Shown here: piece by piece, positions 37,058-52,527 of the stretch
Numbering within the stretch: the first letter of the stretch is position 1
Layout: each line of letters starts with the position of its first letter
From: Methylocystis heyeri
GTDB taxonomy: Bacteria > Pseudomonadota > Alphaproteobacteria > Rhizobiales > Beijerinckiaceae
Assembly (NCBI RefSeq): GCF_004802635.2
Contig: NZ_CP046052.1
Span: forward strand, 1,240,001-1,304,000
Reading direction: 5' to 3'
DNA length: 64,000 bases
The notes under the pieces: generated by a model
What the model saw: only the letters and a program-made list of their open reading frames with translations
What the model was told of the DNA's origin: nothing
The model's database searches: none
Program-made: the position numbers and the translations under genes

Positions 37058-39013
37058 TTACGAGTTCGCCTCGAGCCAGGCCTGAAACATCAGCACGCTC
37101 CACAACCGACCCGTACAGTCGCGGCGGCCGCCGAGATGTCGCCCCCAGGCCTCGCGAATAGGTTTCGCGTCGAGATACCCTTCCCGATCCAGCCGGCTTT
37201 CTTCCAGGAGGTCCTCCGCCCAATCGCGCAGCGGGCCGCGAAGCCACTGGCCCAGCGGAATGGAAAACCCCGCCTTCGGGCGTTCGATCAACTCGCGCGG
37301 CACATATTTATACAACAGCTGACGCAGCGCCCACTTTCCTTGGCCGTCGCGAATTTTCATGTGCAGCGGCAAGCGCCAGGCGAGTTCGACGACCCGGTGA
37401 TCGAGAAACGGAGCCCGGGTTTCGAGGCTCACCCCCATCGCCGCGCGATCCACCTTGGTCAGGATGTCGTCGGGCAGGTAGGTCAGGCTGTCCCACAGCA
37501 TCATTCTATGCTCTGGTTCGGTCACGCCCGCCGTCAAACCCGCGTCGTCGAGCTGCGTAGGCAGAAAGCCGGCGCCGAGCGCCAGCAGGCGCCCATCCGG
37601 CCATTCCTTCACCAGACTGCGATAGAAGTCGTCCAGACTGTCGACGTTTTGAAGCCGGCTGGCCAATTTGTGCGCCTTCTCTTCAAGGCGCGCCACGCCC
37701 CCCACGCCGCCGGACGCACTGCCGAGCGCGCTCCAGATCCATGATGGCGTGGCGCAAATGGCGGAAGCCAGGCGCCGGCGCAGCGCAGGGGGCGTCCGGC
37801 CGAGCAACCCGAACACCCGCCTCGCCCAGATGTAGCGATTATAGCCGCCGAAATGCTCGTCTCCGGCGTCGCCCGAGAGCGCGACGGTGACGCGCCGCGA
37901 CGCCGCCTTGCAGATCAGATAGGTCGGGATTTGCGAGCTGTCGGCGAATGGCTCGTCGTACAATCGGGGAAGAAGGGGAATCACCGCCCGCGCGTCCGCC
38001 GCGCCGAGGCGCAGCTCATGATGATCGGAGCCCAAATGGCGCGCCACCGCCAGAGCGTGGGGCGATTCGTCAAAACCCGCTTCGTCGAATCCCACGGTGA
38101 AAGTCTGCACGGGTCGGGCGGATTGCGCCTGCATCAAAGCGACGATCATGGAGGAATCGACGCCGCCCGACAGGAAGGCCCCCAAGGGCGCGTCGGCCAC
38201 GGACTGCAGGCCGACCGCTTCGTGCAGGGCCGCCTCCAGCAGTGAGAGCGCCTCGTTCTCGTCCCGGAACGGGTTCGCCAGACCCTGCCTCGCCGTCTGC
38301 GCCGCGTTCCAATATGGCTCGATCTGAAGCCGCTGATCCGGCAAATCCTCCGCCCGGAGGGTAAGCAGACTGGCGGGCGCCAGCTTGAAGACGCCCTCGT
38401 AAATCGAGTAAGGCGCGGGCACGACGGAATATTGCAGATAAAGGCCCAAAGCATCCCGGCTCACCGGGTTGGCGAAGCCCGGATAGGCGCGCAAGGCTTT
38501 CAGCTCCGAGCCAAACGCGAATGCGCGTTTGGCGCCTTGGCCGACCCAGCCGTAATAGAGCGGCTTCTCGCCGAAACGATCCCGCCCGAGCGTGAGGCGG
38601 CGTTCGATCCGATCCCATAAAGCGAAGGCGAACATTCCCACCGCCCGCTCCAGCGTAGGGACCACGCCCCATTCGGCGAATCCCGCCAGCAATGTTTCGG
38701 TGTCCGAATGGCCGCGCCATGGGGGCCTGCAGCCTTCTTGCTCCAGCACAGCGCGCAACTCGCGGTGATTGTAAACCTCGCCGTTGAAGACCAGCACGTA
38801 ACGGCCGCAGGCGGAGTGCATGGGCTGGCGCCCGGCGGCGGACAGATCGACGATCGCGAGGCGGCGGAACCCCAACGCTACTCCCGCTTCGGCGTCCGCA
38901 AAGGCGCCCTCGTCGTCCGGCCCGCGATGCCGAACGGAATCCGCCATCGCCGATATGACGGTCTTCATATCCGCCGGCGGACGCGCCGCAATGAACCCGG
39001 CCAGCCCGCACAT
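37058..39013 (-). CDS. asnB: asparagine synthase (glutamine-hydrolysing) family protein
   Basis: A 651-residue class II glutamine amidotransferase plus ATP-pyrophosphatase. Cys2 is the nucleophile (MCGLAGF), which fixes the start at 39013. The glutaminase domain spans about 2-215 and the synthetase P-loop SGGVDSS is at 282-288. In polysaccharide loci such proteins often amidate a uronic or nonulosonic sugar carboxylate instead of making asparagine. The location between glycosyltransferase and EpsG genes favours this role, but it is not proven. Its ATG overlaps the previous stop. Confidence 0.88.
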   Translation of the reverse strand: MCGLAGFIAARPPADMKTVISAMADSVRHRGPDDEGAFADAEAGVALGFRRLAIVDLSAAGRQPMHSACGRYVLVFNGEVYNHRELRAVLEQEGCRPPWRGHSDTETLLAGFAEWGVVPTLERAVGMFAFALWDRIERRLTLGRDRFGEKPLYYGWVGQGAKRAFAFGSELKALRAYPGFANPVSRDALGLYLQYSVVPAPYSIYEGVFKLAPASLLTLRAEDLPDQRLQIEPYWNAAQTARQGLANPFRDENEALSLLEAALHEAVGLQSVADAPLGAFLSGGVDSSMIVALMQAQSARPVQTFTVGFDEAGFDESPHALAVARHLGSDHHELRLGAADARAVIPLLPRLYDEPFADSSQIPTYLICKAASRRVTVALSGDAGDEHFGGYNRYIWARRVFGLLGRTPPALRRRLASAICATPSWIWSALGSASGGVGGVARLEEKAHKLASRLQNVDSLDDFYRSLVKEWPDGRLLALGAGFLPTQLDDAGLTAGVTEPEHRMMLWDSLTYLPDDILTKVDRAAMGVSLETRAPFLDHRVVELAWRLPLHMKIRDGQGKWALRQLLYKYVPRELIERPKAGFSIPLGQWLRGPLRDWAEDLLEESRLDREGYLDAKPIREAWGRHLGGRRDCTGRLWSVLMFQAWLEANS

Positions 39014-40059
39014 CAGCAGAGCTCTTTGACAGATCTGGCGTGGTCGTCGAGCAGATCCCTGCACGCATCGAGCACGGAATCGCGGTAGAGCCGCCGTCCC
39101 TCCCACGTTGCGACGGCGTTGGCGCGCAGCCTCTGATATCGGCCGTCGGAATCCAGGAGTTCGAGAACCGTCGCGACGGCGTCGCGGTCGGAGTCGACAA
39201 TTACGGAATTATAGCCCTCGCGGCAGTAGGAACCGATTTCGCCGACTGGCGTCACTATGGGCGCAAGCCCCAGCTGCATCGCCTCGACGACGGACATCGC
39301 CATCCCTTCCTGCTCGCTGGTCTGGAGATAGAAAGAAGCGTTGCGCGCAAGGCCGGCGATCTCGTCATGCGTCGCGGCTCCCCGGAAAACGACCGCATCC
39401 TTCAGCCCCAGGGACGCGACGAGAGTTTTGAGAGACGCCTCCGAGCCCCTGTCGGGGCCGATTATCACGAAGCGCGCCGAGCGGCGCTTTTCCCGGATCG
39501 AGGCGAATATGCGCACCGCCCTTTCAAGTCCTTTTCCGGGTGCGAGACGGCCCCAGAATATAAAAGTAGGTTCGACCGCGCGAGGCGGCGGCGCGTCGAA
39601 GCGCCGGGTCAGAAACGAAATGATCCGGACTTTCAATGGAGGGCGCGTCAGTCGCCCGGTCAGGGTCGCCTGGCAATCCGCCCAGGCCTCGTCCGCCAGG
39701 GACGCGGCCCAGCGCGTGCACAGCACATCGAGCCAGTGGACATGCTTCGAAGAATGGAGAAACACGACCAGCTTCGACCGAGGCCGCAGCAGTTTGAACA
39801 CCGCTCCAACGAAATAGGCTCGCCATAGGGAGACGATCAGAATGTCGACCTCTTCGCGAGAACGCCGCACAGCCTGCGAAATCATGACCACCGGATCGAG
39901 CGCGTTTTGAAACTTGCTGGCGCTCTCGCTTTTGAAAAGATAATCCACTTCGAAGCGCAACGCGCCGTCCTGCAATGAGCCGATCGATTTGGCTGCGGTC
40001 TCGACGCCGCCGACGCCGTCCCTCGGGATCAGATGGACGATTCTACAGGTGCGGGTCAT
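39013..40059 (-). CDS. GT4 family glycosyltransferase
   Basis: A 348-residue glycosyltransferase. The N-terminal HLIPRDGVGGVETAAKSI and the domain-two stretch FIFWGRLAPGKGLERAVRIF with SEQEGMAMSVVEAMQLGLAPIVTPVGEI match GT4. Donor and acceptor are unknown. It is translationally coupled to asnB by a TGATG overlap. Confidence 0.87.
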   Translation of the reverse strand: MTRTCRIVHLIPRDGVGGVETAAKSIGSLQDGALRFEVDYLFKSESASKFQNALDPVVMISQAVRRSREEVDILIVSLWRAYFVGAVFKLLRPRSKLVVFLHSSKHVHWLDVLCTRWAASLADEAWADCQATLTGRLTRPPLKVRIISFLTRRFDAPPPRAVEPTFIFWGRLAPGKGLERAVRIFASIREKRRSARFVIIGPDRGSEASLKTLVASLGLKDAVVFRGAATHDEIAGLARNASFYLQTSEQEGMAMSVVEAMQLGLAPIVTPVGEIGSYCREGYNSVIVDSDRDAVATVLELLDSDGRYQRLRANAVATWEGRRLYRDSVLDACRDLLDDHARSVKELC

Positions 40060-42352: not shown

Positions 42353-43294
42353 CTATGGCGTCACGCAAATCGAGCAGCCTACCGCGCGCCCGATCGCCTC
42401 GGCCTCCTCCGCCTCCCGGGACGATTCGCCGTCTCTGAACACGAGCATCGTCTTGGTCGCCCGTTGCGGCGGAAGCGAAAACAGCACCGTGCTGGTCAAG
42501 CCGATGATCTCGGGCCGGGCGTCGCCGCAGCTCTGCAAAATCGCGTCCTCGGCGATGAGACCCTGCTTGTCGAATTCGCGGGCGCCTATGTCCAAAGACT
42601 GGCGCTCCCTGGGGTGCCGGACGTAAAAGTCTATCTGCCGTTTGCGCAGAAAGGCGCTCAGCCGCGCGATCCGTTCGGGCGTCAGAAACTCGTGAAACGG
42701 TTGACCGATAAAAAACACCGGCCCCTGAACCTGTGGAAGCGCTCCATCGGGCAGCGGGTCTATCGGCCGCAGCCTGTCGCGGGGGACGATGTTCTCAAAA
42801 TTGGGGAAGATCGTGTAATGTCGCGCGATGCGGTTCCGGAGTTCGTCGAGCCTGGACGCGCCGAACAGCCGGCGATAGGCTTCTTCGCGTCCTTCGTATC
42901 CAGCGCGGCGATATGCGCCCGACGCGACGATATTGGCGAGGCCGTCGTCGAAAGTGACGAGTTGCGCGCCCGCCTGACGCTTTGCGATGGCGTTGAAGAC
43001 ATAGCAATCTATGCTGGCGAGAACGACGATGTCGCGACGCAGATCGCACATGAACGCCCCGGCATGGACGCGAAACCGGATGTGATTGAGGATATCCCGG
43101 CGCGACGGCGGCACATGGATGAATTTCGCCTGCCGGGCGCGCTGCGCGAGCAACGAGAAATAGCGCCTGTCCTCCGGCGAGGCCTGATGCGTAAAATAGA
43201 GCAGATCGAAGCTGTCGACACGCTCATGGCGGAGCACGCGATCGACGAGATTGGCCTGCGACGGCGTCCGACACAAAACAAGAGCCGAGGTCAT
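42353..43294 (-). CDS. GT52-family (Lst-like) sialyl-/nonulosonyltransferase
   Basis: A 313-residue protein matching the pattern of the Neisseria Lst family: FIHVPP near FFHLP, VVLASIDCYVFNAI, the hallmark VTFDDGLANI, RHYTIF, FYVRHPRERQ and LIAEDAIL occur in the same order and spacing. GT52 enzymes transfer sialic-acid-type sugars from CMP donors. Here the donor should be the CMP-nonulosonate made by the adjacent leg genes. The ATG at 43294 has a strong GGAGGGG ribosome-binding site. Acceptor and linkage are not predictable. Confidence 0.82.
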   Translation of the reverse strand: MTSALVLCRTPSQANLVDRVLRHERVDSFDLLYFTHQASPEDRRYFSLLAQRARQAKFIHVPPSRRDILNHIRFRVHAGAFMCDLRRDIVVLASIDCYVFNAIAKRQAGAQLVTFDDGLANIVASGAYRRAGYEGREEAYRRLFGASRLDELRNRIARHYTIFPNFENIVPRDRLRPIDPLPDGALPQVQGPVFFIGQPFHEFLTPERIARLSAFLRKRQIDFYVRHPRERQSLDIGAREFDKQGLIAEDAILQSCGDARPEIIGLTSTVLFSLPPQRATKTMLVFRDGESSREAEEAEAIGRAVGCSICVTP

Positions 43295-43333
43295 CGCGTC
43301 CCCTCCCACCAACCAAACGATTTTGCCTGCAGC

Positions 43334-44395
43334 CTAAAGCATTTCCGGAAACAATCCGCCGAACTCTCTTCTTGCTTTCTCCATATCGTCCTTATTGCCG
43401 ATATCGACCCAGCTTTCTCGGATCGGAAACACGCAAACCTTGCTTCCTTTCACGATCATGGCCTCGCAGACAGTCGGCATGTCGCAAGCCTCGCCTGCTT
43501 TGACATAGTCCAGCGCCTCCGGCGCCAGCACGTAGATCCCGGCGTTGATCATGTGGCTGTATTTCGGCTTCTCGTCTATTCCCACCAGCCTCACTCCCTC
43601 GAACCTGACGACTCCGAAAGGCGACTGCGTTACATGTTCGCGCACGCAAACGGTGGCGTCGGCGACATGATCCTCATGAAAGCGCAGGAGGCTTTGGAAA
43701 TGCACCAATGTCATCAGGTCCGCGTTCATGACGATGAAGGGCTTCGTCGGCCTCGAAGGCAGTAGCGCCAGACTGCCCGCCGTGCCCAGCTTCTCGTTTT
43801 CCACGAGATATTGGATCTCGACGTCGAAATCCCGGCCGTCACGGAAATAGCTTTGGATGATCTCCCGCTTGTAGTTTACGGAGATATAGAATTTGCGGAA
43901 GCCCTGCGCCGAAAGGTTGCGGATTATCGATTCCAGCAAGGGCCGGCCCCCGATGGGCAGCATGGGCTTGGGAATCGAGTCGGTCAGCGGCCGCAGGCGG
44001 TCGCCGCGGCCGCCCGCCATCAGCACGACCCACCTTTCGTTGGAGGAAGGCTCGATCATCTCCCCGATCAATTCCAGACCGAGGACGCGGCCTTCGGCGT
44101 CGACCACCGGAACCTGGGAGATTTTGTGCTCGCGCATCAACCTCAGCGCCGCGGTTCTGCTGTCATTCTCCTCGACAGCCAGCGGATTCCGCCTCATGAC
44201 CTCGCTCACAGGAGCGTCGAGACCGACGCCGCGCAAAATACCGCGGCGCGTGTCGCCGTCTGTCACGGTTGCAATAAGGCGGCGTTCCGGCCCCACGACC
44301 AGGGCGAGATTTACAGCGCCCCTGTCGATGGCCTGAATAGCGTCGAGAACAGTCGCCTGTTCGCCGATGACGATGTCGTCGAGGTCTGTCTTCAT
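43334..44395 (-). CDS. ptmE: PtmE-like nucleotidyltransferase with CBS domains
   Basis: A 353-residue protein with two CBS motifs (about 1-117) fused to a nucleotidyltransferase domain (MAGGRGDRLRPLTDSIPKPML at 126-146). This domain order is that of Campylobacter PtmE, a glucosamine-1-phosphate guanylyltransferase that starts the GDP-linked route to legionaminic acid. Its place between legF and the GT52 gene supports that role. A generic sugar-1-phosphate nucleotidyltransferase is the alternative. Confidence 0.82.
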   Translation of the reverse strand: MKTDLDDIVIGEQATVLDAIQAIDRGAVNLALVVGPERRLIATVTDGDTRRGILRGVGLDAPVSEVMRRNPLAVEENDSRTAALRLMREHKISQVPVVDAEGRVLGLELIGEMIEPSSNERWVVLMAGGRGDRLRPLTDSIPKPMLPIGGRPLLESIIRNLSAQGFRKFYISVNYKREIIQSYFRDGRDFDVEIQYLVENEKLGTAGSLALLPSRPTKPFIVMNADLMTLVHFQSLLRFHEDHVADATVCVREHVTQSPFGVVRFEGVRLVGIDEKPKYSHMINAGIYVLAPEALDYVKAGEACDMPTVCEAMIVKGSKVCVFPIRESWVDIGNKDDMEKARREFGGLFPEML

Positions 44396-45120
44396 TGTTG
44401 GGAAACCATAGCGTCGCCGGCGGCTCCGAGCCGCCGCCGCATCAGGAAATCTGCAAACAGGAAGTCCAGTTGGGTGTCTATGTCGACAGACCGCTCCTCG
44501 GGCATGACGAGAAGCCGGGTCGTCGGATAGAAGACGGAGGGCTCATCGACCAGCGCGGCGCGCGTCCAGACGTAGATCGAGCCGTTCATGTCATAGCAGC
44601 GCGGCGCGTCCTGGCGCCGGACGATCGGGCGGTCGAGCGTTTTGGACAGACTCGCCACGCCGTCGGGAGCCTCCTCGACCAGGCTGAAATAAGGCGAACA
44701 TTTCGCAACCTGCCCGGTGATGACGCTTTGTGCGCCAGTCTCGGCGCGCAATGCCACGGCGGCGGCGATATCCTCCGGCAGTCTAAGCGGGCTGGTCGGC
44801 TGCAAGTCGACCACGATGTCGGCCTCCCGTCCAAGAGCCGCTTCCGCCTCGAGCGCGCAGTGGCGGATCGCCGGCAGCTTCGAGGCGTCGTCCGTCGCCA
44901 TTTCCGCCGGGCGCTTTACCAGAAGATCGGCGCCCGCCGCCTGCCCTGCGGCGAGGATATCGGCGTCGTCGCTGCTGACCGCGATCAGCGCAAAAAGACC
45001 GGTCGCTTTCGCTTGTTCGATCGACCACGCGATCAGCGGCTTGCCGGCCAGCGGGCGAATGTTCTTTCCGGGCACCCCTTTCGAGCCGCCCCGCGCGAGT
45101 ATGGTGCAAATCAAGGTCAT
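44392..45120 (-). CDS. legF: CMP-nonulosonate (N,N'-diacetyllegionaminate) cytidylyltransferase
   Basis: A 242-residue acylneuraminate cytidylyltransferase that activates the nine-carbon sugar as its CMP form. The nucleotide-binding LARGGSKGVPGKN motif is at 8-20 and the LQPTSPLR stretch binds the sugar. The ATG overlaps the legG stop as ATGA, which fixes the start. The symbol follows the pathway assignment; the protein family does not by itself separate NeuA from LegF. Confidence 0.88.
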   Translation of the reverse strand: MTLICTILARGGSKGVPGKNIRPLAGKPLIAWSIEQAKATGLFALIAVSSDDADILAAGQAAGADLLVKRPAEMATDDASKLPAIRHCALEAEAALGREADIVVDLQPTSPLRLPEDIAAAVALRAETGAQSVITGQVAKCSPYFSLVEEAPDGVASLSKTLDRPIVRRQDAPRCYDMNGSIYVWTRAALVDEPSVFYPTTRLLVMPEERSVDIDTQLDFLFADFLMRRRLGAAGDAMVSQQ

Positions 45121-46337
45121 GGGTCGCCGCCTTCGAAGATCGATCCGTTGAGCATCCTGTTCTCGACCGGAATCGCCTCTGCGCGGTCGATAAACTTCTT
45201 CCTGATGAGTTCTCGCGACAAGGGCGCCGCTACTAGGATGTCGGCGATGCGGGCCGACGAAAGCCCGTCTCCATAGGGATTCTCCATTCCGTCCAGGGCG
45301 GCGCGGAATTGGCTCGACAACGCAGTCCCCCAGGCCTCGGCTATGGCGTCGCGCCGGGTCGGCGTCGTTACGACGTTGCGGGGCTCGATTCTGCCGGCCT
45401 GTCGCGTTCCGATATTGACGACGGGAAGGCGAAAGGTCGCCGCCTCGATGATCCCCGACGACGAATTGCCGACGAGGCAATCGCAATGTCCGAGAAACTG
45501 GAAATAGCGCCGCTTGCCGAGCGAGGGCACGACGAGACAGTCTCCGCGCTTCTTCACATAAGCGCGGATGGCTTCCAGAATGTGAAGCGATCCCGTGTCG
45601 GAGTTCGGATGGGTGAAGAGGATCTGCGTTTGGGACATGAGATCGGCGGCTGCGAGAATTTCCGCGATATTGGCGGCCGCATCTTCATAGCCGATGGTCT
45701 CGGGGTGATAGGTGAACAGGCTGAGAGGCCGTCCCGGATCGAGCCCCAATTCGCCATAGACCTCGTCCTTCGGCAGCAGCTCCATGGTTCGGAACAGATC
45801 GAGCCCCGGCTCGCCGACCACGTGAATTCGCCATTCTTCTTCTCCCAGTTGCATGATCCGCCGGCCATAGCTTTGCGCGGTCGGAAAATGCAGATGGGAG
45901 AGCTTGGTGACGGCGTGACGTATCGCGTCGTCTATGACGCCCTCGGTCACCTCCCCTCCGGAGAGATGCGCCACGGGGATATTGAACGGCAGCGCAGCGA
46001 GAACGACGGGAATCATGTCGTAGCGGTCGCCCAACACGACGAGAATATCCGGCCGATCGGCGCTGAAAGCCCGCCCATAGCCCGCCAGCACCTCGGCCAT
46101 GGCCTCCGCGAGGTCGGCGGGACCGTCGCCCTTTATCTCGCAGGGCACGCGGATCGTGCATTCGCCGAATTCTTCTTCGACCTCGCCGATGGAAAAGCCG
46201 TTGATGGCGGAAAAATGGGTTCCTCCCGCGTAGATTTGCAGCCGCACGCCGGGATGCTCCCGCAAAACCCGCAGCAAAGGCAAAAGAACGCCGTAATCGG
46301 ATCTGGCCGTCGTGGCGACGCCTATCGAGCGGGCCAT
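45117..46337 (-). CDS. legG: NeuC/LegG-type hydrolysing NDP-sugar 2-epimerase
   Basis: A 406-residue enzyme that removes the nucleotide and epimerises C2 to give the hexosamine precursor of the nonulosonic acid. VATTARSDYGVLLPLLRVL, LGDRYDM (102-108), SGGEVTEG and GNSSSGIIEA are NeuC/LegG motifs. In a legionaminic context the substrate would be NDP-2,4-diacetamido-trideoxy-glucose, not UDP-GlcNAc. It overlaps legI by 16 bp, with GAGG upstream. Confidence 0.88.
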   Translation of the reverse strand: MARSIGVATTARSDYGVLLPLLRVLREHPGVRLQIYAGGTHFSAINGFSIGEVEEEFGECTIRVPCEIKGDGPADLAEAMAEVLAGYGRAFSADRPDILVVLGDRYDMIPVVLAALPFNIPVAHLSGGEVTEGVIDDAIRHAVTKLSHLHFPTAQSYGRRIMQLGEEEWRIHVVGEPGLDLFRTMELLPKDEVYGELGLDPGRPLSLFTYHPETIGYEDAAANIAEILAAADLMSQTQILFTHPNSDTGSLHILEAIRAYVKKRGDCLVVPSLGKRRYFQFLGHCDCLVGNSSSGIIEAATFRLPVVNIGTRQAGRIEPRNVVTTPTRRDAIAEAWGTALSSQFRAALDGMENPYGDGLSSARIADILVAAPLSRELIRKKFIDRAEAIPVENRMLNGSIFEGGDP

Positions 46338-47335
46338 TTCAACACCTCGCCGCGCTTGAAATCGGCCCAGGCCGCAACCCCGACGACAAGATCTACATCG
46401 CGCGCCGGTATGCCATCCTCGGGCCTCAGCGCCACGAGATCGTCTTCCCTTATTGTCTCGCCGGCCGAAATGTCCCGTGCGGCGACCAGGGACCGGCGCA
46501 CGGCGCGGATCGTGTCGCGTTCGATGGCGCGAAGGCCTTTCTCGCCGCTGCCGAGCATGGCCTCCACCGAGCGAACCGCATCGATGAGCGTCTTCAACCC
46601 CGCCGGATCGACGGAAGCGCGATGATCGGGGCCGGGAAGGTCCCGATCCAAAGTGAAATGCTTCTCGATCATGACGGCGCCCATCGCTGCGGCGGCGGCG
46701 GCGGCAAGGAACCCTTCGCTGTGATCGGAGAGGCCGGTCGGCAGTCCAAAGCGGTCGCGGATCGTGGTCATCGAGCGCAGATGGATTTCATCGACCGGCG
46801 TGGGATAGGCCGTGGTGCAATGAAGCACGGTGAAGTCGACCTCTTCTTTGGGCCTCGCGGCGCGCAAAGTGTCGAGCGCGAAGCCGATCTCCTCCAGCGT
46901 GCACATGCCGGTCGACAATATGATCGGCAGCCCCTTCGCCCCGGCGCGGCGGAGAAGAGGAACGTTGACCGCCTCGCCGGAGGGTATCTTGATGCGACGC
47001 ATGCCGAGTTCGCCGACGAGATAATCGAGACTGGGGAGGTCGAAAGCTGTCGAAAGAAACTCGATGCCGATCGTATCGCAATGCCGTTTGAGCGCAGCGA
47101 AATCCTCCTTGCCGAGCTCCAGCCCCTTCACGAGGTCGAACATGGTCTCGGCGCCCGTCTTGCGCTGATAAGCGACAAGCGGCGTATCGGAGCGCAACAC
47201 CAGCTCGGTTGAAAAGGTTTGGAACTTGACCACGTCGGCGCCGCTTTCCTTGGCGACGTCGATGAGCCGATGCGCCATTTCGACCGAACCATTGTGATTG
47301 ACGCCGGCCTCCGCGACCACGACCGTCCTTGTCAT
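46322..47335 (-). CDS. legI: NeuB/LegI-type nonulosonate synthase
   Basis: Condenses the hexosamine with phosphoenolpyruvate to form the nonulosonic acid. The N-terminal TIM barrel starts AEAGVNHNG (8-16), and IEKHFTLDRDLPGPDH is the conserved metal/substrate region. A C-terminal SAF (antifreeze-like) domain occupies about 275-337. It is 337 residues long. Its ATG overlaps the stop of the upstream fusion gene (ATGA). Confidence 0.92.
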   Translation of the reverse strand: MTRTVVVAEAGVNHNGSVEMAHRLIDVAKESGADVVKFQTFSTELVLRSDTPLVAYQRKTGAETMFDLVKGLELGKEDFAALKRHCDTIGIEFLSTAFDLPSLDYLVGELGMRRIKIPSGEAVNVPLLRRAGAKGLPIILSTGMCTLEEIGFALDTLRAARPKEEVDFTVLHCTTAYPTPVDEIHLRSMTTIRDRFGLPTGLSDHSEGFLAAAAAAAMGAVMIEKHFTLDRDLPGPDHRASVDPAGLKTLIDAVRSVEAMLGSGEKGLRAIERDTIRAVRRSLVAARDISAGETIREDDLVALRPEDGIPARDVDLVVGVAAWADFKRGEVLKWPAR

Positions 47336-49146
47336 TCCGTGACCCCCGATGGACTTTGAGCTGAAGCGGGAGGCGCGGCAGGAAGCTCCTGCCCCGACCT
47401 CGAGACTTGTACGGCTTCGAAAACACGACGATCGTCGCTGTCGATGTTGGCCGGCCGGGCTTTGAGCGGGCGCGCCGGAACGCCGCCGACTTTCCGGCCT
47501 CGCGGAACATCCGCGGTCACGACCGCTCCCGCCGCGACAAGCGCGCCGTCTCCGATCCTCACGTTCTGAATGACGATCGCTCCTGTTCCGATGTGAACGC
47601 TGTGGCCTATCGTCACTCCGCCCGAAAGGCTAACCCCGGGCGCAATATGAACATGCTCGCCGATGAGGCAATCGTGATCGACGATCGCGCCCGTGTTGAC
47701 GATGGAATTCGCCTCGATTCGCACGCCGGTCTGAATAATGGCGCCCGCCATTATCTGCACGCCCTCGCCCAGCACGACGTCCTCGTCGACAATCGCCGTG
47801 GGATGGACGAGAGAAAGAAAGGAGAAACCGCTGGCGGCGAAACGCTCGAAAATAATGCGTCGCAGCGTCAGATTGCCGACCGATCCGATCGCGTTGAGCA
47901 GGTAGAGCGCTTCCTTATCCACCTGCGATAAGATCTCGTCGTCCCCGAGCCAGGGGATCGAATCCGACAGGATGTAAGGCGAGATCGCACGACACACGCA
48001 GCCGCTGGGCGAAAGACCCAGAGCTTTCAAGGTGGCGATCAGTGACCGCGCATGGCCGCCGCCGCCGAGCATGAGAATCTCGCGGTCGAGCTTGCCGCCG
48101 GAAACGGAAACTTCTTTTCGCACTAAGGCGTCCTTGCGATCAGGCGACCTGTTCTCGGCGAACCGGGCTTTGAGATCCACGCTTCCCGTCCCCGTTGCGC
48201 CTTGCGAAACGGAACACAAGAAACGACTGCCACCGCCGCCCAATCGTTCATAGGCGTCGTGATCATGCACGATTCCCGCGACGTAATAGGGCGCACGCAG
48301 GGGCGAGAACTTCGATTTGAACGCCAAAAGCGCATCGTCGGCCGCGGTGGAGCGTCCGCCGCCCAGACACATCAATTTTGCTCCGAGCCCGGAAAAGTGC
48401 TCGAAAGCGGTCTCAAGTATGAGATAGGCCGCGTTCAGCCTCCGCGCCCTCTCCGCGCCGCCCGCCAGATGGTAATGGCAGATCTCGCCGCCGGAGTGGA
48501 GAAAACACCCGACCGCCAGCGGCCCCTCGTCGTCGTAGGCCAGCCAGGCTTTCGCCCAGGGCCTCGCGAGCAAGGCGTCGAAAAAGCCGTCGTCGAAATA
48601 ATAGCTCTTCTCTGCGAGATTGCGGCCGAGACCCGCCTCGTAAAGCTCCCGGAACAAGGGCGCTTCTTCGGCGCCGATACGGCGGATGCCCAGAAGGCGC
48701 GAGGCCTTGCGCACGCAATTGCGCGTGCTGTCCGAGTAATATTTCCACCGCGCCCCCCGCCCCTCCTCCAGATCGACCATGACGGTCCATCGGTTGAAAT
48801 GGAGCATATCGACATGATCTGCGAGCGACGCCGGATTGAGCAGCGGGTGCAGGCGCAGGAACTCCGCAACTGCGCCTGCTTCGCGCTGGCGCTCCTTCCA
48901 GAGAGCCAGGCCGGTCTGCAAGGCCGACGGGGCGAGCGCCAGCGGCCCGCCAAACCCCCAGGAGGTCTGCAAGTCGAAATGGGCGGAGCCGGGAATCGGC
49001 ACGACGGCGGCCCCATGGGCGAAAGCCTCCTCGATCGCGCAATCAAAACCGTGTCTGGCGTGTATCGCGATGAAATCCTCGAGGAAATAGACGTCCCCGA
49101 GAAGTTCGCGAGCGTCGAACCGCCCATGGGTCATCGGCGCATGCAT
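47332..49146 (-). CDS. fusion protein: FemAB/GNAT-like domain plus NeuD/PglD-type sugar O/N-acyltransferase
   Basis: A single 604-residue frame holds two unrelated parts. Residues about 1-315 resemble FemAB/GNAT acyltransferases (YYSDSTRNCVRKASRLLGI, HYHLAGGAERARRLNAAYLI). Residues 355-560 are a PglD/NeuD/LegH acyltransferase with a dinucleotide-like start (LMLGGGGHARSLI) and left-handed beta-helix hexapeptides containing the probable catalytic His491 (IVDHDCLIGEHVHIAPG). The second half fits the acetylation step (LegH) needed before LegG. The first half's role is unknown; it may acylate a second amino group. AAAAGGG before the ATG at 49146 supports this start. No frameshift is visible between the halves. 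Confidence 0.8.
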   Translation of the reverse strand: MHAPMTHGRFDARELLGDVYFLEDFIAIHARHGFDCAIEEAFAHGAAVVPIPGSAHFDLQTSWGFGGPLALAPSALQTGLALWKERQREAGAVAEFLRLHPLLNPASLADHVDMLHFNRWTVMVDLEEGRGARWKYYSDSTRNCVRKASRLLGIRRIGAEEAPLFRELYEAGLGRNLAEKSYYFDDGFFDALLARPWAKAWLAYDDEGPLAVGCFLHSGGEICHYHLAGGAERARRLNAAYLILETAFEHFSGLGAKLMCLGGGRSTAADDALLAFKSKFSPLRAPYYVAGIVHDHDAYERLGGGGSRFLCSVSQGATGTGSVDLKARFAENRSPDRKDALVRKEVSVSGGKLDREILMLGGGGHARSLIATLKALGLSPSGCVCRAISPYILSDSIPWLGDDEILSQVDKEALYLLNAIGSVGNLTLRRIIFERFAASGFSFLSLVHPTAIVDEDVVLGEGVQIMAGAIIQTGVRIEANSIVNTGAIVDHDCLIGEHVHIAPGVSLSGGVTIGHSVHIGTGAIVIQNVRIGDGALVAAGAVVTADVPRGRKVGGVPARPLKARPANIDSDDRRVFEAVQVSRSGQELPAAPPASAQSPSGVTE

Positions 49147-50189
49147 CGCCTCACCCTTTTCGCCAGTTCGAGCATATCCGCCTCGGTATAGCGCTGATCA
49201 ATAGGCAGGCCGACGAGGCGACGCGCGAGATCTTCCGCACGAGGATGAAGGTCATGCCGGCGCCGCGCGTTGGGCCAAAGCGCCGTGGCGAACACGCGCG
49301 CTGCGTGCAGACGGGCCAAAACAGCGGCGCGGTCTTCTACGAGGATCGACAGATTGAAGGGCGTCCCACCTGGGAGGCGCAAGATCTCGACGTGGTCTCC
49401 GAGCGCTTGTTCGAGGGCTTTCCAATTTCGCCAACGGGCGTCGGCATGCGCTTTGGGATCGAGCCACGATAGCCGCCAGAGCCCGGAGTCGCTCACCCGG
49501 TGCGGCGCATCGGGCCACGCCGCTTCGGCTCGCGCCGTAAAGGCCAGCGCGTCAGGCTCGTTCTCGGGAGAACGACAGGCCATCAGCGAACGCGCGGCGA
49601 GCTTCGCTGCGACCGCTTCGATCGCCCAGGGCAGGCGTTTGACGCGAGCGCGTTCTTCCTCGGATACTCTGTGCATCCGAAGTATCGCCCCGTCCCCGAG
49701 ACTCGCGCATTTACGAGGGCCGGAAATGACGGCCGTATTTTCAGCGGTCTCGAATGACAGATGACCAAAGGCCGTCTGCGCGGCGTCGATCACGACAAGC
49801 CCGCTCTCGCCGACCGCCGCAGCGAGACGGGAAACATCTACAGCCGGTTCATGACCGAGAAAGGCCGGCGCGACGACGAGCAGCCGCCCTTTTTCCGAAC
49901 CCACCGCCTGCTCCCAATCAGCCGAGAAGACATCGACGAGCCGCAGCCGCAGGCCGATTTTCTCCAGCAATGCCGGGACCGTTGGGCAGGTGTAGGCCGA
50001 GATCACGGCGCAGTCGAACCGGCCGCTGCGCTCGCAAAGCCAGCGCAGCGCCGCGCGGCCGTGAGAAAAGGCGAGACAGGACTCCGGCAGCGGACTCGGC
50101 TCGGCGAGAAGCGGATCGCAGCCGAGCGGCAGCTCGCCGCCAAAGGCCGGCGCCGTCGTCGCAGATCCAAAACGCGCTAGCGGATTCAC
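49131..50189 (-). CDS. divergent DegT/DnrJ-type aminotransferase-like protein
   Basis: A 352-residue protein with the PLP-fold pattern of sugar aminotransferases but weak motifs: SAYTCPTVPALLEKIGLRLRLVDV, VVIDAAQTAFGH (Asp135) and a candidate PLP lysine at 160 (GPRKCASLGDGA). It follows the bona fide LegC and overlaps the fusion gene. It may install a second amino group that the FemAB-like domain acylates, or it may be a regulator-like or non-catalytic paralogue. Confidence in the family is moderate and in the role low. Confidence 0.6.
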   Translation of the reverse strand: MNPLARFGSATTAPAFGGELPLGCDPLLAEPSPLPESCLAFSHGRAALRWLCERSGRFDCAVISAYTCPTVPALLEKIGLRLRLVDVFSADWEQAVGSEKGRLLVVAPAFLGHEPAVDVSRLAAAVGESGLVVIDAAQTAFGHLSFETAENTAVISGPRKCASLGDGAILRMHRVSEEERARVKRLPWAIEAVAAKLAARSLMACRSPENEPDALAFTARAEAAWPDAPHRVSDSGLWRLSWLDPKAHADARWRNWKALEQALGDHVEILRLPGGTPFNLSILVEDRAAVLARLHAARVFATALWPNARRRHDLHPRAEDLARRLVGLPIDQRYTEADMLELAKRVRRCMRR

Positions 50190-50202: not shown

Positions 50203-51393
50203 TCACGACGCCAGCTTCGCGCTCGAGGGAATGTTGATGAGGCGCGCCTCGATCGCCTCGGCGACAGGAAGAGCCGCCCTCGGGCAGCTCCGATACATCG
50301 GCAGACGATGCAGCAGCGTCCAGGCCGGACGACACATCAGTCCGGCGTCATTGGCCGCCGCCAGAAGCGTGTCGCGTTCGGATACGCGGTCTTCATCCAG
50401 CATCACCGCGTTCAGCCAATAATTGCTGGTGGCGAAAGCCGGCTCCCGGAACACGGCGAGCCCCTCGCAATCCGCAAAACCGACGAAATAGCGCTCGGCG
50501 AGACGTCGCTTTCGCGCAACCAGATCTTCGAGCCGCGCAAGCTGCGCGCAGCCGAGCGCCGCGTTGATGTTGGGGAGACGATAGTTATAACCGACCTGGT
50601 CGTGATTGAACGCCCATCTGTGCGGCGTCTTGGCCGTCGTCGTCAGATGTTTGACCTGCCGCGCGAGATCTGGATCATTGGTGACGATAGCGCCGCCCCC
50701 GCCCGTGGTGATTATTTTATTGCCGTTGAAGGAAAGCGCCCCGATTCGCCCGAGCGCGCCGCAAGGCCCGCCTTTGTACAGACTCCCGAGCGACTCCGCC
50801 GCGTCCTCGATCACCGGAAGGTCGAAGTCCGCGCCAAGAGCCAGTAGTCCGTCCATGTCCACGGGATGGCCGAACGCATGCATCGGAACGATCGCCGCGA
50901 TGCGCCGGCCGGTTTCGGCATTGATGCAAGAGCCGCAACGGCGGTCCGCGATTTTTGTGAGGTAGTCGCGCAGCGCCGCCGGATCGAGACCCAGCGTGTC
51001 CGCGGCGCTGTCGGCGAAATGCGGAACGGCGCCCGCATGAACCGCTGCATTGGCGGTCGCCACAAAAGTGAGCGCCGGAACGATCACCTCGTCGCCCGGT
51101 CGAACGCCGGATACGATCAGAGCCACATGCAGAGCGGCCGTGCCGTTGACGACGGCTATCCCATGCCGGGCTCCGCAGCGCTGCGCGATTTCGCTTTCGA
51201 AGCGATCGACATATTTGCCGACGGATGACACCCACCCGCTGTCGAGACAGTCCTTCACCAGCTCCCACTCGGCGCCGGAGAACTCGGGCTCATGCAGGGC
51301 GACCGCCGCGTTCCCTCCGCCCGCAATGTCGAGCAGCCGGGCGACGAAGGTCCGCGCCAGATCGCGTATCTCGGTTTTTTTGCCGGCGTTCAC
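50203..51393 (-). CDS. legC: LegC-type NDP-4-keto-sugar aminotransferase
   Basis: A 396-residue DegT/DnrJ/EryC1 aminotransferase. EPEFSGAEWELVKDCLDSGWVSSVGKYV is a LegC-like N-terminus, DLPVIEDAAESLGS carries the PLP-contacting Asp, and Lys226 in FNGNKIITTGGGG is the Schiff-base lysine. It aminates C4 of the LegB product. It lies between legB and the acyltransferase gene in pathway order. Confidence 0.9.
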   Translation of the reverse strand: MNAGKKTEIRDLARTFVARLLDIAGGGNAAVALHEPEFSGAEWELVKDCLDSGWVSSVGKYVDRFESEIAQRCGARHGIAVVNGTAALHVALIVSGVRPGDEVIVPALTFVATANAAVHAGAVPHFADSAADTLGLDPAALRDYLTKIADRRCGSCINAETGRRIAAIVPMHAFGHPVDMDGLLALGADFDLPVIEDAAESLGSLYKGGPCGALGRIGALSFNGNKIITTGGGGAIVTNDPDLARQVKHLTTTAKTPHRWAFNHDQVGYNYRLPNINAALGCAQLARLEDLVARKRRLAERYFVGFADCEGLAVFREPAFATSNYWLNAVMLDEDRVSERDTLLAAANDAGLMCRPAWTLLHRLPMYRSCPRAALPVAEAIEARLINIPSSAKLAS

Positions 51394-51421: not shown

Positions 51422-52432
51422 TCAGATGTTGTAACGGGCAGTTTTATAGGCGGCGAGGTTTTGAGGATCGCGGAACCACTCGGCGGTTTTCCTCAATCCA
51501 TCGACGAAGCCCTGGCGCCCGGAGTGCTCCGGGCTCCAGCCGAACAGGCTCCTGGCGAGGTCGACGCCGGCGAAAAGACGTTCGACCTCGCTCCCCGAGG
51601 GCCGCAGACGCTCATCGTCGCAAACGATCTCGATCTCAGCGCCCATCACCTTTGCGATGAGCGCGGCCGTTTCGCCGACCGAAATTTCGAACCCGCTGCC
51701 GATATTCGTCACGCGGCCGACTGTCTCGGCGCAACGCGCCGCCGCGATGAAGCCGCGGGCGGTGTCGGTCACAAAGGTGAAATCGCGGGTCGGCGTGAGC
51801 GCGCCGAGCTTGATTCTGCGCTGACCCGAGGCGATCTGGCCGATGATGGTCGGAATGACCGCGCGCGCCGATTGGCGAGGTCCATAGGTATTGAACGGCC
51901 GCAGCACTGCGACGGGCAGACCGAATGACTGGTGAAAAGAAAGTGCGAGCTGGTCTGCCGCGGTCTTGGTGGCCGCATAGGGCGACTGCGCGTTCAGCGG
52001 ATGATCTTCGGTGATCGGAACCTGACGCGCAGTGCCGTAAACTTCGGACGTCGACGTGCACACGATCTTGTCGACGCCGAGATCGCGGGCGGCCTGAAGT
52101 ATGTTGAGCGTTCCCCTGACGTTCGTTTCCACATAGGCGTCGGGCGAATGATAGCTGAACGGTATGGCTATCAATGCGGCGAGATGCATGACGACCTGGC
52201 GTCCTCGCATAGCGTTTCGCACGCCATAGGGATCGCGAATATCCCCAGCGACCACCTCGAATTGTCCTGCGACGTCCGACGCGCATCGATCGAGCCAACC
52301 CCAGGAATTAAAGGAATTGTAAAAGACAAAGGCTTTGACGTCCCAGCCCTCGCGAACCAGCGCCTCGACGAGATGTGATCCGATGAAGCCGTCCGCGCCG
52401 GTGACGAGAACGCTCCGTTTAACCGAGCTCAT
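51422..52432 (-). CDS. legB: LegB-type NAD-dependent sugar 4,6-dehydratase
   Basis: A 336-residue extended SDR protein. The N-terminal VLVTGADGFIGSHLVEALV, the VFYNSFNSWGWLD stretch specific to the LegB group, and SPYAATKTAAD with the catalytic Tyr and Lys are intact. It makes the 4-keto-6-deoxy sugar nucleotide that starts the pathway. The ATG at 52432 is used because AGGAG lies 5 nt upstream; an ATG-like start 24 nt earlier lacks one. Confidence 0.9.
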   Translation of the reverse strand: MSSVKRSVLVTGADGFIGSHLVEALVREGWDVKAFVFYNSFNSWGWLDRCASDVAGQFEVVAGDIRDPYGVRNAMRGRQVVMHLAALIAIPFSYHSPDAYVETNVRGTLNILQAARDLGVDKIVCTSTSEVYGTARQVPITEDHPLNAQSPYAATKTAADQLALSFHQSFGLPVAVLRPFNTYGPRQSARAVIPTIIGQIASGQRRIKLGALTPTRDFTFVTDTARGFIAAARCAETVGRVTNIGSGFEISVGETAALIAKVMGAEIEIVCDDERLRPSGSEVERLFAGVDLARSLFGWSPEHSGRQGFVDGLRKTAEWFRDPQNLAAYKTARYNI

Positions 52433-52527
52433 TTCCGCTCCTGAGTTCTGCCCCAAACCGCATTTCGGCGCCCCTGTTAAACCAGCGTCTCCTCGAAACT
52501 TTGCGTGCTCGGATCGTCGCCGATGCT

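What the first reader, a model, noticed from the sequence alone, without database searches (positions are those of the whole stretch)
47332..49146. FemAB/GNAT-like domain fused to a NeuD/PglD acyltransferase
Seen: one uninterrupted 604-residue frame with a FemAB/GNAT-like N-terminal half and a left-handed beta-helix NeuD half. Known: LegH/PglD acetylates the 4-amino group on its own; the extra domain is not needed for that step. Inference: the protein may place two different acyl groups, giving an unusual N-acylated nonulosonic acid, possibly one bearing an aminoacyl group as FemAB enzymes use tRNA-linked amino acids.
Basis: partly seen in the sequence, partly recalled or inferred. Interest (0 to 1): 0.72.

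Follow-up and report, generated by a model that had tools for sequence, protein, structure and literature searches.

The report
FemX-like aminoacyltransferase fused to NeuD acetyltransferase
A probable methane-oxidising bacterium carries one protein that joins an enzyme resembling those that take amino acids from transfer RNA to an enzyme that acetylates amino sugars; the first half recurs, mostly as a separate gene, in many bacterial gene clusters for sialic-acid-like sugars, where it may hang an amino acid on the sugar.

Summary
The 604-residue fusion is real (minus strand, 47332-49146). The N-half ("FemN") resembles FemX rather than an acetyl-CoA GNAT. Its 49-row profile finds 8 PDB sequences, all aminoacyl-tRNA-dependent transferases (FemX E 1.4e-19). 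Foldseek ranks 1-28 of its model are FemX, FemA, MprF/aminoacyl-PG synthases and streptothrisamine-bound enzymes. FemX Lys305 aligns with invariant Lys277. The C-half is NeuD/PglD (TIGR03570).

Among 80 related loci FemN is a frame of 395 residues or fewer in 71, 52 have NeuB, and FemN is directly beside NeuB in 26. NeuD occurs in 5 of 52 FemN+NeuB loci against 12 of 16 FemN-less LegB+NeuB regions (p 1e-6). A PLP enzyme like window 49131-50189 occurs in 33 of 52 against 0 of 16. FemN is also fused to NeuD in reverse order, to a GNAT and to a formyltransferase.

Best reading: FemN puts an amino acid from aminoacyl-tRNA on the sugar's C4 amine and NeuD N-acetylates it, as the known sugar Leg5Ac7AcAla would need. 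Donor, acceptor and order are inferred.

The parts
47332..49146 (-). 604-residue fusion gene, FemN-NeuD
   Evidence: open frame; families
48235..49146 (-). FemX-like domain (FemN), residues 1-304
   Evidence: profile match to FemX; AlphaFold model pLDDT 89.8, low confidence from residue 305 on; Foldseek
48316..48318 (-). Lys277 codon, aligned with FemX Lys305; invariant column of the 49-row alignment
   Evidence: FemX numbering counted by hand; role of Lys305 from PMC12945691 (passages)
48085..48234 (-). linker, residues 305-354
   Evidence: pLDDT under 50 from residue 305 (the model ends at 339); other two forward frames have stops
47452..48084 (-). NeuD/PglD left-handed beta-helix acetyltransferase domain, residues 355-565
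   Evidence: TIGR03570; motif NTGAIVDHDC
49131..50189 (-). PLPx: DegT-fold PLP enzyme that travels with FemN
   Evidence: no Pfam hit at E <= 1 and no NCBIfam hit at E <= 0.01; homologous to L016 protein E 7e-10, 21%; D135 and K160 invariant in the 27-row alignment; model pLDDT 91.6, best Foldseek matches sugar aminotransferases
50203..51393 (-). LegC aminotransferase
   Evidence: TIGR04181 520 bits over 420
51422..52456 (-). LegB 4,6-dehydratase
   Evidence: TIGR04180 502 bits over 475
46322..47335 (-). NeuB/LegI synthase
   Evidence: PF03102, SAF; TIGR03569 398.3 bits, just under the cut-off of 399.65
45117..46337 (-). NeuC/LegG hydrolysing 2-epimerase
   Evidence: TIGR03568 377 bits over 236
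44392..45120 (-). CMP-nonulosonate synthetase; start put at an in-frame ATG by me
   Evidence: PF02348 and TIGR03584 begin at residue 126 of the longer frame; TIGR03584 126 bits is under its cut-off of 205.7
43334..44395 (-). CBS + nucleotidyltransferase, PtmE/LegX-like (name recalled)
   Evidence: PF00483 and CBS
42353..43312 (-). candidate nonulosonate transferase (GT52 / polysialyltransferase-like)
   Evidence: PF07922 E 2.7e-15; PF07388 22.6 bits, just under 23.3

Best explanation
The protein is a two-step N-acyltransferase of a legionaminic-type pathway. The FemN half takes an amino acid from an aminoacyl-tRNA (donor inferred) and forms an amide with the C4 amine that LegC has just made on the nucleotide sugar (acceptor inferred). 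The tethered NeuD half then uses acetyl-CoA to N-acetylate, most likely the new free alpha-amine of the amino acid (order inferred). After NeuC and NeuB the result would be a nonulosonic acid with an N-acetyl-aminoacyl group on N7, like Leg5Ac7AcAla. PLPx next door is taken to condition the aminoacyl part, for example by setting its configuration; this is the weakest step. Shown here: the folds, the family memberships, the conserved Lys and the genomic associations. Not shown: any activity.
For: 8 PDB sequences match the FemN profile at E up to 10, all aminoacyl-tRNA-dependent transferases, FemX best at 1.4e-19. Foldseek ranks 1-28 are FemX, FemA, MprF/aminoacyl-PG synthases (5vrv only putative) and streptothrisamine-type Sba18/Sbb17; an acetyl-CoA tandem GNAT first appears at rank 29 (50 of 882 hits listed). 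FemX Lys305 aligns with invariant Lys277. FemN lies within 400 bases of NeuB in 26, PLPx in 22 and LegC in 21 of 80 loci. NeuD: 5 of 52 FemN+NeuB loci against 12 of 16 FemN-less LegB+NeuB regions; PLPx: 33 of 52 against 0 of 16. In loci with a PglC-like sugar transferase and no NeuB (7 of the 80; also L022, L056, L064) the C4 amine of the LegC product is the amine one expects to be free; L022, L056, L124 and L148 have no NeuD-like frame next to FemN. FemN is fused to NeuD in reverse order (L126), to a GNAT (L094, L101) and to a formyltransferase (L098, L099, L111, L129) (Pfam-checked for L126, L101 and L098). Vibrio owensii L078 has PglF-LegC-FemN-NeuB-NeuC-PLPx-GNAT-PtmE-like-CMP synthetase. 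V. vulnificus CMCP6 makes Leg5Ac7AcAla, and passages on the related A. wodanis cluster imply a second aminotransferase before PtmE and NeuA (PMC7371886, passages). N-acetyl-alanyl groups on amino-dideoxy sugars are known in marine bacteria (PMC3210612, passages).
Against: No activity data. Of the window's nearest FemN relatives, L094 and L101 keep a separate NeuD beside a FemN-GNAT fusion, so NeuD may keep its usual 4-N-acetylating job, in conflict with FemN acting on the same amine (L132 has no NeuD; L100 is cut by its contig end). The window NeuD is most like the NeuD of an ordinary LegB cluster (46% to L185). An N-acetyl-, formyl- or methyltransferase partner was detected in only 38 of 80 loci. 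Some bacillosamine-type loci also have a NeuD-like gene (L114, L121, L135), and L078 has a weak one upstream. FemX Arg211 is not conserved (aligned with Phe184). I did not see the V. vulnificus cluster itself. The control set is small, from Pseudomonadota only, chosen by LegB while the FemN set was chosen by FemN, and left out the 2 of 22 LegB genomes that have FemN.
Confidence: 0.48

Rival explanations
1. Two independent N-acyltransferases in one chain: NeuD acetylates the C4 amine as LegH does, and FemN aminoacylates another amine (the later N5 position after deacetylation, or a different sugar of the same polymer). The fusion only couples their expression.
For: The window NeuD resembles NeuD of an ordinary LegB cluster. 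L094 and L101 have separate NeuD plus FemN-GNAT. C. botulinum flagellin carries an N-methylglutamyl group on N5 and acetyl on N7 (PMC5207245, passages).
Against: NeuD is found in only 5 of 52 FemN+NeuB loci. No deacetylase appeared among the window genes scanned. FemN also occurs in loci with PglC and no NeuB.
Confidence: 0.22
2. FemN is a tandem-GNAT N-acyltransferase that uses acyl-CoA or acyl-ACP (a LegH analogue for acetyl, hydroxybutyryl and the like); the FemX likeness is only of fold.
For: PF13480 is named a GNAT acetyltransferase and 46 of 49 FemN rows match it at E <= 1. Hydroxybutyryl groups are known on bacillosamine and on a nonulosonic acid (PMC3210612, passages). A Clostridium paper recognises LegH only by a putative N-acetyltransferase domain (PMC13317340, passages); whether that gene is a FemN was not checked.
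Against: No CoA enzyme among the 8 PDB sequence hits; CoA GNATs rank below 28 chains of aminoacyl transferases; the pattern [RQ]xxGx[GA] occurs in only 11 of 49 rows, at scattered positions, and in the window row only at residue 301 (positions not checked in structure).
Confidence: 0.22
3. The FemN half has lost catalysis and only docks the NeuD trimer to the pathway.
For: Fusions sometimes keep a domain for tethering; general knowledge only.
Against: Lys277 and the other invariant residues of the family are kept in the window copy, and FemN is a stand-alone-sized frame in 71 of 80 loci.
Confidence: 0.06

Closest known systems
FemX of Weissella viridescens (FemABX family)
   Same: Double-GNAT fold (TM 0.68), sequence profile (E 1.4e-19), catalytic Lys305 position
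   Different: Acceptor: sugar-nucleotide amine (inferred) instead of UDP-MurNAc-pentapeptide; Arg211 replaced by Phe; sits in nonulosonate clusters; here fused to NeuD
Orf11 / Sba18 / Sbb17, tRNA-dependent transferases acting on streptothrisamine, an amino-sugar intermediate
   Same: FemX-like; 9wqw found by sequence (E 5e-10) and 9wqy by fold (TMt 0.72); Orf11 uses Gly-tRNA on streptothrisamine (PMC12945691, passages)
   Different: Antibiotic pathway (Orf11: Streptomyces), no nonulosonic acid; that no NeuD is attached was not checked
NeuD / PglD / LegH sugar N-acetyltransferases
   Same: C-half: TIGR03570 above cut-off; best PDB hits are pilin-glycosylation, perosamine, VioB and PglD-type acetyltransferases
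   Different: Carries a whole FemX-like domain at its N-terminus; the PglD_N match is weak (16 bits, cut-off 23.4)
Pathway for Leg5Ac7AcAla in Vibrio vulnificus CMCP6 / Aliivibrio wodanis
   Same: Expected chemistry (amino acid and acetyl on N7); a second aminotransferase before PtmE and NeuA is implied (PMC7371886, passages)
   Different: I have not seen that cluster's genes; in Vibrio owensii the candidate acetyltransferase is a separate GNAT (L078), not NeuD

Membership tests
FemABX aminoacyl-tRNA-dependent transferases | significant match to FemX/FemA by sequence profile | tested here: met
   FemX E 1.4e-19, lipid II:glycine glycyltransferase 6snr E 2.5e-11 with profile A7; window half alone passes the PF02388 gathering score; the single sequence finds no PDB chain
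FemABX aminoacyl-tRNA-dependent transferases | two GNAT domains in FemX arrangement | tested here: met
   model pLDDT 89.8; FemX aligned over 331 columns, TM 0.68, first of 255 hits at E <= 0.001
FemABX aminoacyl-tRNA-dependent transferases | catalytic Lys305 (FemX numbering) | tested here: met
   aligned with K277, an invariant column of the 49-row alignment
FemABX aminoacyl-tRNA-dependent transferases | Arg211 of FemX at the nucleotide of the acceptor (role recalled) | tested here: not met
   aligned with invariant Phe184; concerns the acceptor, not the chemistry
FemABX aminoacyl-tRNA-dependent transferases | aminoacyl-tRNA as donor | not testable with these tools
   needs an assay
acetyl-CoA GNATs | [RQ]xxGx[GA] pyrophosphate-binding loop in the GNAT core (motif recalled) | tested here: inconclusive
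   pattern scan over 49 rows: 11 with scattered matches, window only at residue 301; positions were not checked in structure
NeuD/PglD/LegH acetyltransferases | TIGR03570 above curated cut-off | tested here: met
   206.8 over 160.8 bits, residues 357-559
NeuD/PglD/LegH acetyltransferases | catalytic His after the NT motif (recalled from PglD) | tested here: met
   NTGAIVDHDC in the window, NTAAVMEHEC in L126
NeuD/PglD/LegH acetyltransferases | PglD_N nucleotide-sugar domain | tested here: inconclusive
   residues 357-435, 16 bits, cut-off 23.4; GGGGH present
NeuD/PglD/LegH acetyltransferases | acetylation of the 4-amino sugar nucleotide | not testable with these tools
   needs an assay
legionaminic acid pathway | LegB, LegC, NeuC-type, NeuB-type, CMP synthetase, PtmE-like in one cluster | tested here: met
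   LegB, LegC and NeuC over cut-off; NeuB 398.3 against 399.65; CMP synthetase below the PseF cut-off

The most novel reading that the evidence does not exclude
Bacteria of many phyla have a tRNA-dependent aminoacylation branch in nonulosonic acid and bacillosamine biosynthesis: a FemX-like enzyme replaces or joins LegH/PglD and, often with a dedicated PLP enzyme and in part of the clusters with an N-acetyl-, formyl- or methyltransferase partner, builds aminoacyl sugars from the pool of charged tRNA; here the branch is compressed into one FemN-NeuD enzyme.
Probability: 0.5. Interest if true: 0.78.

Novelty: new variant of a known kind. Interest (0 to 1): 0.63.

Why it matters
Aminoacyl groups on surface sugars of bacteria are known from structures, but in my searches of the open library (most subscription papers are not held) I found no enzyme named for placing them on nonulosonic acids. 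If FemN is that enzyme, it links the charged-tRNA pool to flagellar, capsular and lipopolysaccharide sugars in loci titled Pseudomonadota, Campylobacterota, Bacillota, Bacteroidota and others. It would explain clusters without NeuD, and the partner gene could help predict the 7-N substituent. The fusion gives a one-protein test system.

Tried and rejected
Sequencing artefact: rejected, because the frame is open, the other two forward frames of the linker have stops, GC3 is similar in the halves, and FemN is fused to other partners in relatives.

Ordinary CoA-GNAT: kept only as a rival.

A general survey with profile A1 in 397 genomes gave 52 with a match (E <= 1e-12), but many matches cover only part of the profile and may be other PF13480 proteins; I followed up a few of the strongest.

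Checking whether Campylobacter LegH (Cj1298) is a FemN: left open. One paper names it only an N-acetyltransferase (PMC3438082, passage); Plesiomonas LegH is 217 residues and NeuD-like (PMC4481668, passages); in Halorubrum LegH and NeuD are separate genes (PMC6137143, passages). PMC11339370 (passages) gave nothing of use.

Shewanella oneidensis sfmABCDE (PMC3765264, passages): read for a link; in the passages seen none of the sfm genes is described as a FemN or PLPx type.

Recurrence of the L126 NeuD-FemN fusion: 17 of 250 family genomes matched at E <= 1e-40, and apart from L126's own genome no match covers both halves. In the 43 genomes of the order of L094, FemN was found in 2, L094's own included.

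The NeuD count depends on the threshold: 5, 8 or 11 of 52 at 1e-15, 1e-12, 1e-8, p 1.1e-6, 1.8e-5, 1.5e-4 against 12 of 16. In 13 loci that I picked by title as Pseudomonadota, 2 of 13, p 0.0025. In the control, 3 of the 16 have a formyltransferase-like gene.
Full report
WHAT IS THERE. The window lies in a 4.7 Mb genome with three genes of the AMO/pMMO subunit A family, so probably a methane oxidiser (inference). On the minus strand, LegB (51422-52456), LegC (50203-51393), a PLP protein here called PLPx (49131-50189), the fusion (47332-49146), NeuB, NeuC, a CMP-sugar synthetase, a CBS-nucleotidyltransferase and a GT52-like transferase follow one another. Around them are glycosyltransferases, a flippase-like protein, an EpsG-like and a Wzy_C protein, so this is an exopolysaccharide locus. 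That the sugar is legionaminic acid rather than an epimer is inferred from the LegB/LegC families.

THE FUSION. 604 residues, uninterrupted. N-half: PF13480 and, scanned alone, PF02388 FemAB at 27.7 bits over 24. C-half: TIGR03570 NeuD at 206.8 bits over 160.8, with the PglD-type His motif. phmmer with the N-half alone found nothing in the PDB at E up to 10. A profile of 49 relatives (A7) finds 8 sequences at E up to 10: five FemX of Weissella (best 1.4e-19), one lipid II:glycine glycyltransferase and two aminoacyl-tRNA-dependent peptide synthases. In the printed alignment FemX 'VFKHV', whose lysine counts to 305, falls on Lys277, an invariant column. FemX Arg211 falls on the invariant Phe184 (both counted by hand). 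A review calls Lys305 catalytic and describes Orf11, a FemABX relative that uses Gly-tRNA on streptothrisamine; [quoted passage not shown]

FOLD. The N-half model has mean pLDDT 89.8, with low confidence only from residue 305 on. Foldseek gave 882 matches at E <= 10, of which 50 were listed. Ranks 1-28 are FemX, FemA, MprF/aminoacyl-phosphatidylglycerol synthases (5vrv is only a putative one), Sba18 and Sbb17; acetyl-CoA tandem GNATs start at rank 29. The PLPx model has pLDDT 91.6, and its best matches are DegT-type sugar aminotransferases. Its Asp135 and Lys160 are invariant in the 27-row alignment, so it is probably an active PLP enzyme.

RELATIVES. A scan of genome contigs (84,980 species) with the four-row alignment A4 gave 205 pattern matches, 156 relatives, of which the best 80 were kept (L075-L154). 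An earlier scan with the window half alone found none. In 71 of 80 the best FemN frame has 395 residues or fewer. In the 80: NeuB in 52 (E < 1e-30), PLPx in 44, LegC in 56, the methyltransferase in 14, NeuD (E < 1e-15) in 9 as a separate gene and in 1 fused. I call the methyltransferase PtmH-like from recall and from PMC13317340 (passages), not from a sequence test. Within 400 bases of FemN on its strand: NeuB in 26, PLPx in 22, LegC in 21 of 80. Seven of the 80 have a PglC-like transferase and no NeuB; of these L114, L121 and L135 also have a NeuD-like gene.

CONTROL. LegB (TIGR04180) was sought in 398 genomes of the window's phylum; 22 passed its cut-off. I fetched regions of about 15-20 kb for 20 of the 22, leaving out the window genome and G914, both of which have FemN. 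16 of the 20 have NeuB. NeuD: 12 of 16; FemN, PLPx and the methyltransferase: 0 of 16; a formyltransferase-like gene: 3 of 16. FemN+NeuB loci: NeuD 5 of 52, one of them the L126 fusion (Fisher p 1.1e-6), PLPx 33 of 52 (p 3.6e-6). With laxer NeuD thresholds 8 or 11 of 52 (p 1.8e-5, 1.5e-4); in 13 loci picked by title as Pseudomonadota, 2 of 13 (p 0.0025). So FemN tends to stand where NeuD/LegH would. The two sets differ in taxa and in how they were found, so the p-values are a guide only.

OTHER FUSIONS. L126 (Lachnospiraceae): NeuD first, FemN second, 567 residues, in one cluster with the methyltransferase and NeuB. L094 and L101: FemN followed by a GNAT-like domain, with a separate NeuD (Pfam cut-off passed in L101, not in L094, which matches the L101 domain at 1.6e-26). 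Helicobacter L098, L099, L111 and L129: formyltransferase followed by FemN (Pfam checked in L098 only). L132 has about 150 further residues after FemN without a Pfam match. The FemN tree puts the window with L094, L100 and L101 (100/95), away from L126, so fusion with NeuD probably arose twice. LegC-PLPx-FemN is the order in the window, L094 and L100. Counting fused and separate genes, an N-acetyl-, formyl- or methyltransferase partner was detected in 38 of 80 loci and not in the other 42. Where partners exist they belong to families that commonly act on amines, as expected if FemN leaves a free amino acid amine; two acylations of the sugar itself would fit as well.

FIT WITH KNOWN CHEMISTRY. 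V. vulnificus CMCP6 makes Leg5Ac7AcAla; the A. wodanis cluster is called similar, and a passage implies a second aminotransferase ahead of PtmE and NeuA (PMC7371886, passages). Vibrio owensii L078 has PglF, LegC, FemN, NeuB, NeuC, PLPx, GNAT, PtmE-like, CMP synthetase in that order, and a weak NeuD-like frame upstream. C. botulinum flagellin carries Leg5GluNMe7Ac (PMC5207245, passage of the introduction) and its island has a PtmH orthologue (PMC13317340, passages); I did not look at its genes, and there the amino acid is on N5, not N7. That the V. vulnificus alanine is D is recalled.

WHAT IS NOT IN PRINT. One search (any two of FemAB, nonulosonic, legionaminic, pseudaminic, bacillosamine): 186 papers, 15 listed, all with zero FemAB; a paper with FemAB and one other term could lie unlisted. 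Search 79: four papers, none on this by its title or abstract start. One search (aminoacyl-tRNA with legionaminic): one paper, on antimicrobial peptides. Most subscription papers are not held, so this is weak.

VERDICT. The donor, the acceptor amine and the order of the two steps remain inferences.

Noticed in passing
window 49131-50189 (-): PLPx matches no Pfam (E <= 1) or NCBIfam (E <= 0.01) model although its model has a DegT-type fold and it keeps the PLP Asp and Lys; it appears to be an unnamed family tied to FemN.
   Followed up: partly
window 42353-43312 (-): Glycosyltransferase family 52 / polysialyltransferase-like protein at the end of the nonulosonate genes, a candidate for transfer of the CMP-sugar into the polysaccharide.
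   Followed up: no
window 37058-39106 (-): Asparagine-synthase-like amidotransferase within the exopolysaccharide locus.
   Followed up: no
L098 87-2306, L099 8981-11206, L111 9041-11215, L129 8822-10963: Helicobacter loci with a formyltransferase-like region in front of FemN in one frame.
   Followed up: partly
L137, L140, L144 (Planococcus): Several FemN-like frames lie together in one locus.
   Followed up: no
L102 1341-3680: CBS-nucleotidyltransferase (PtmE-like) fused to LegC in one 780-residue frame beside FemN.
   Followed up: no
L092: A contig titled Cytophagales MAG shares 6126 of 8557 31-mers with the Aeromonas popoffii locus L080, so it may be a binning error.
   Followed up: partly
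L054 (G238, same genus as the window): A more distant FemN-like gene in a stretch where no NeuB or NeuC was detected.
   Followed up: no
L021 (Azospirillum oryzae plasmid): A FemN-like gene next to a carbamoyltransferase, with radical SAM genes nearby, outside a nonulosonate cluster.
   Followed up: no
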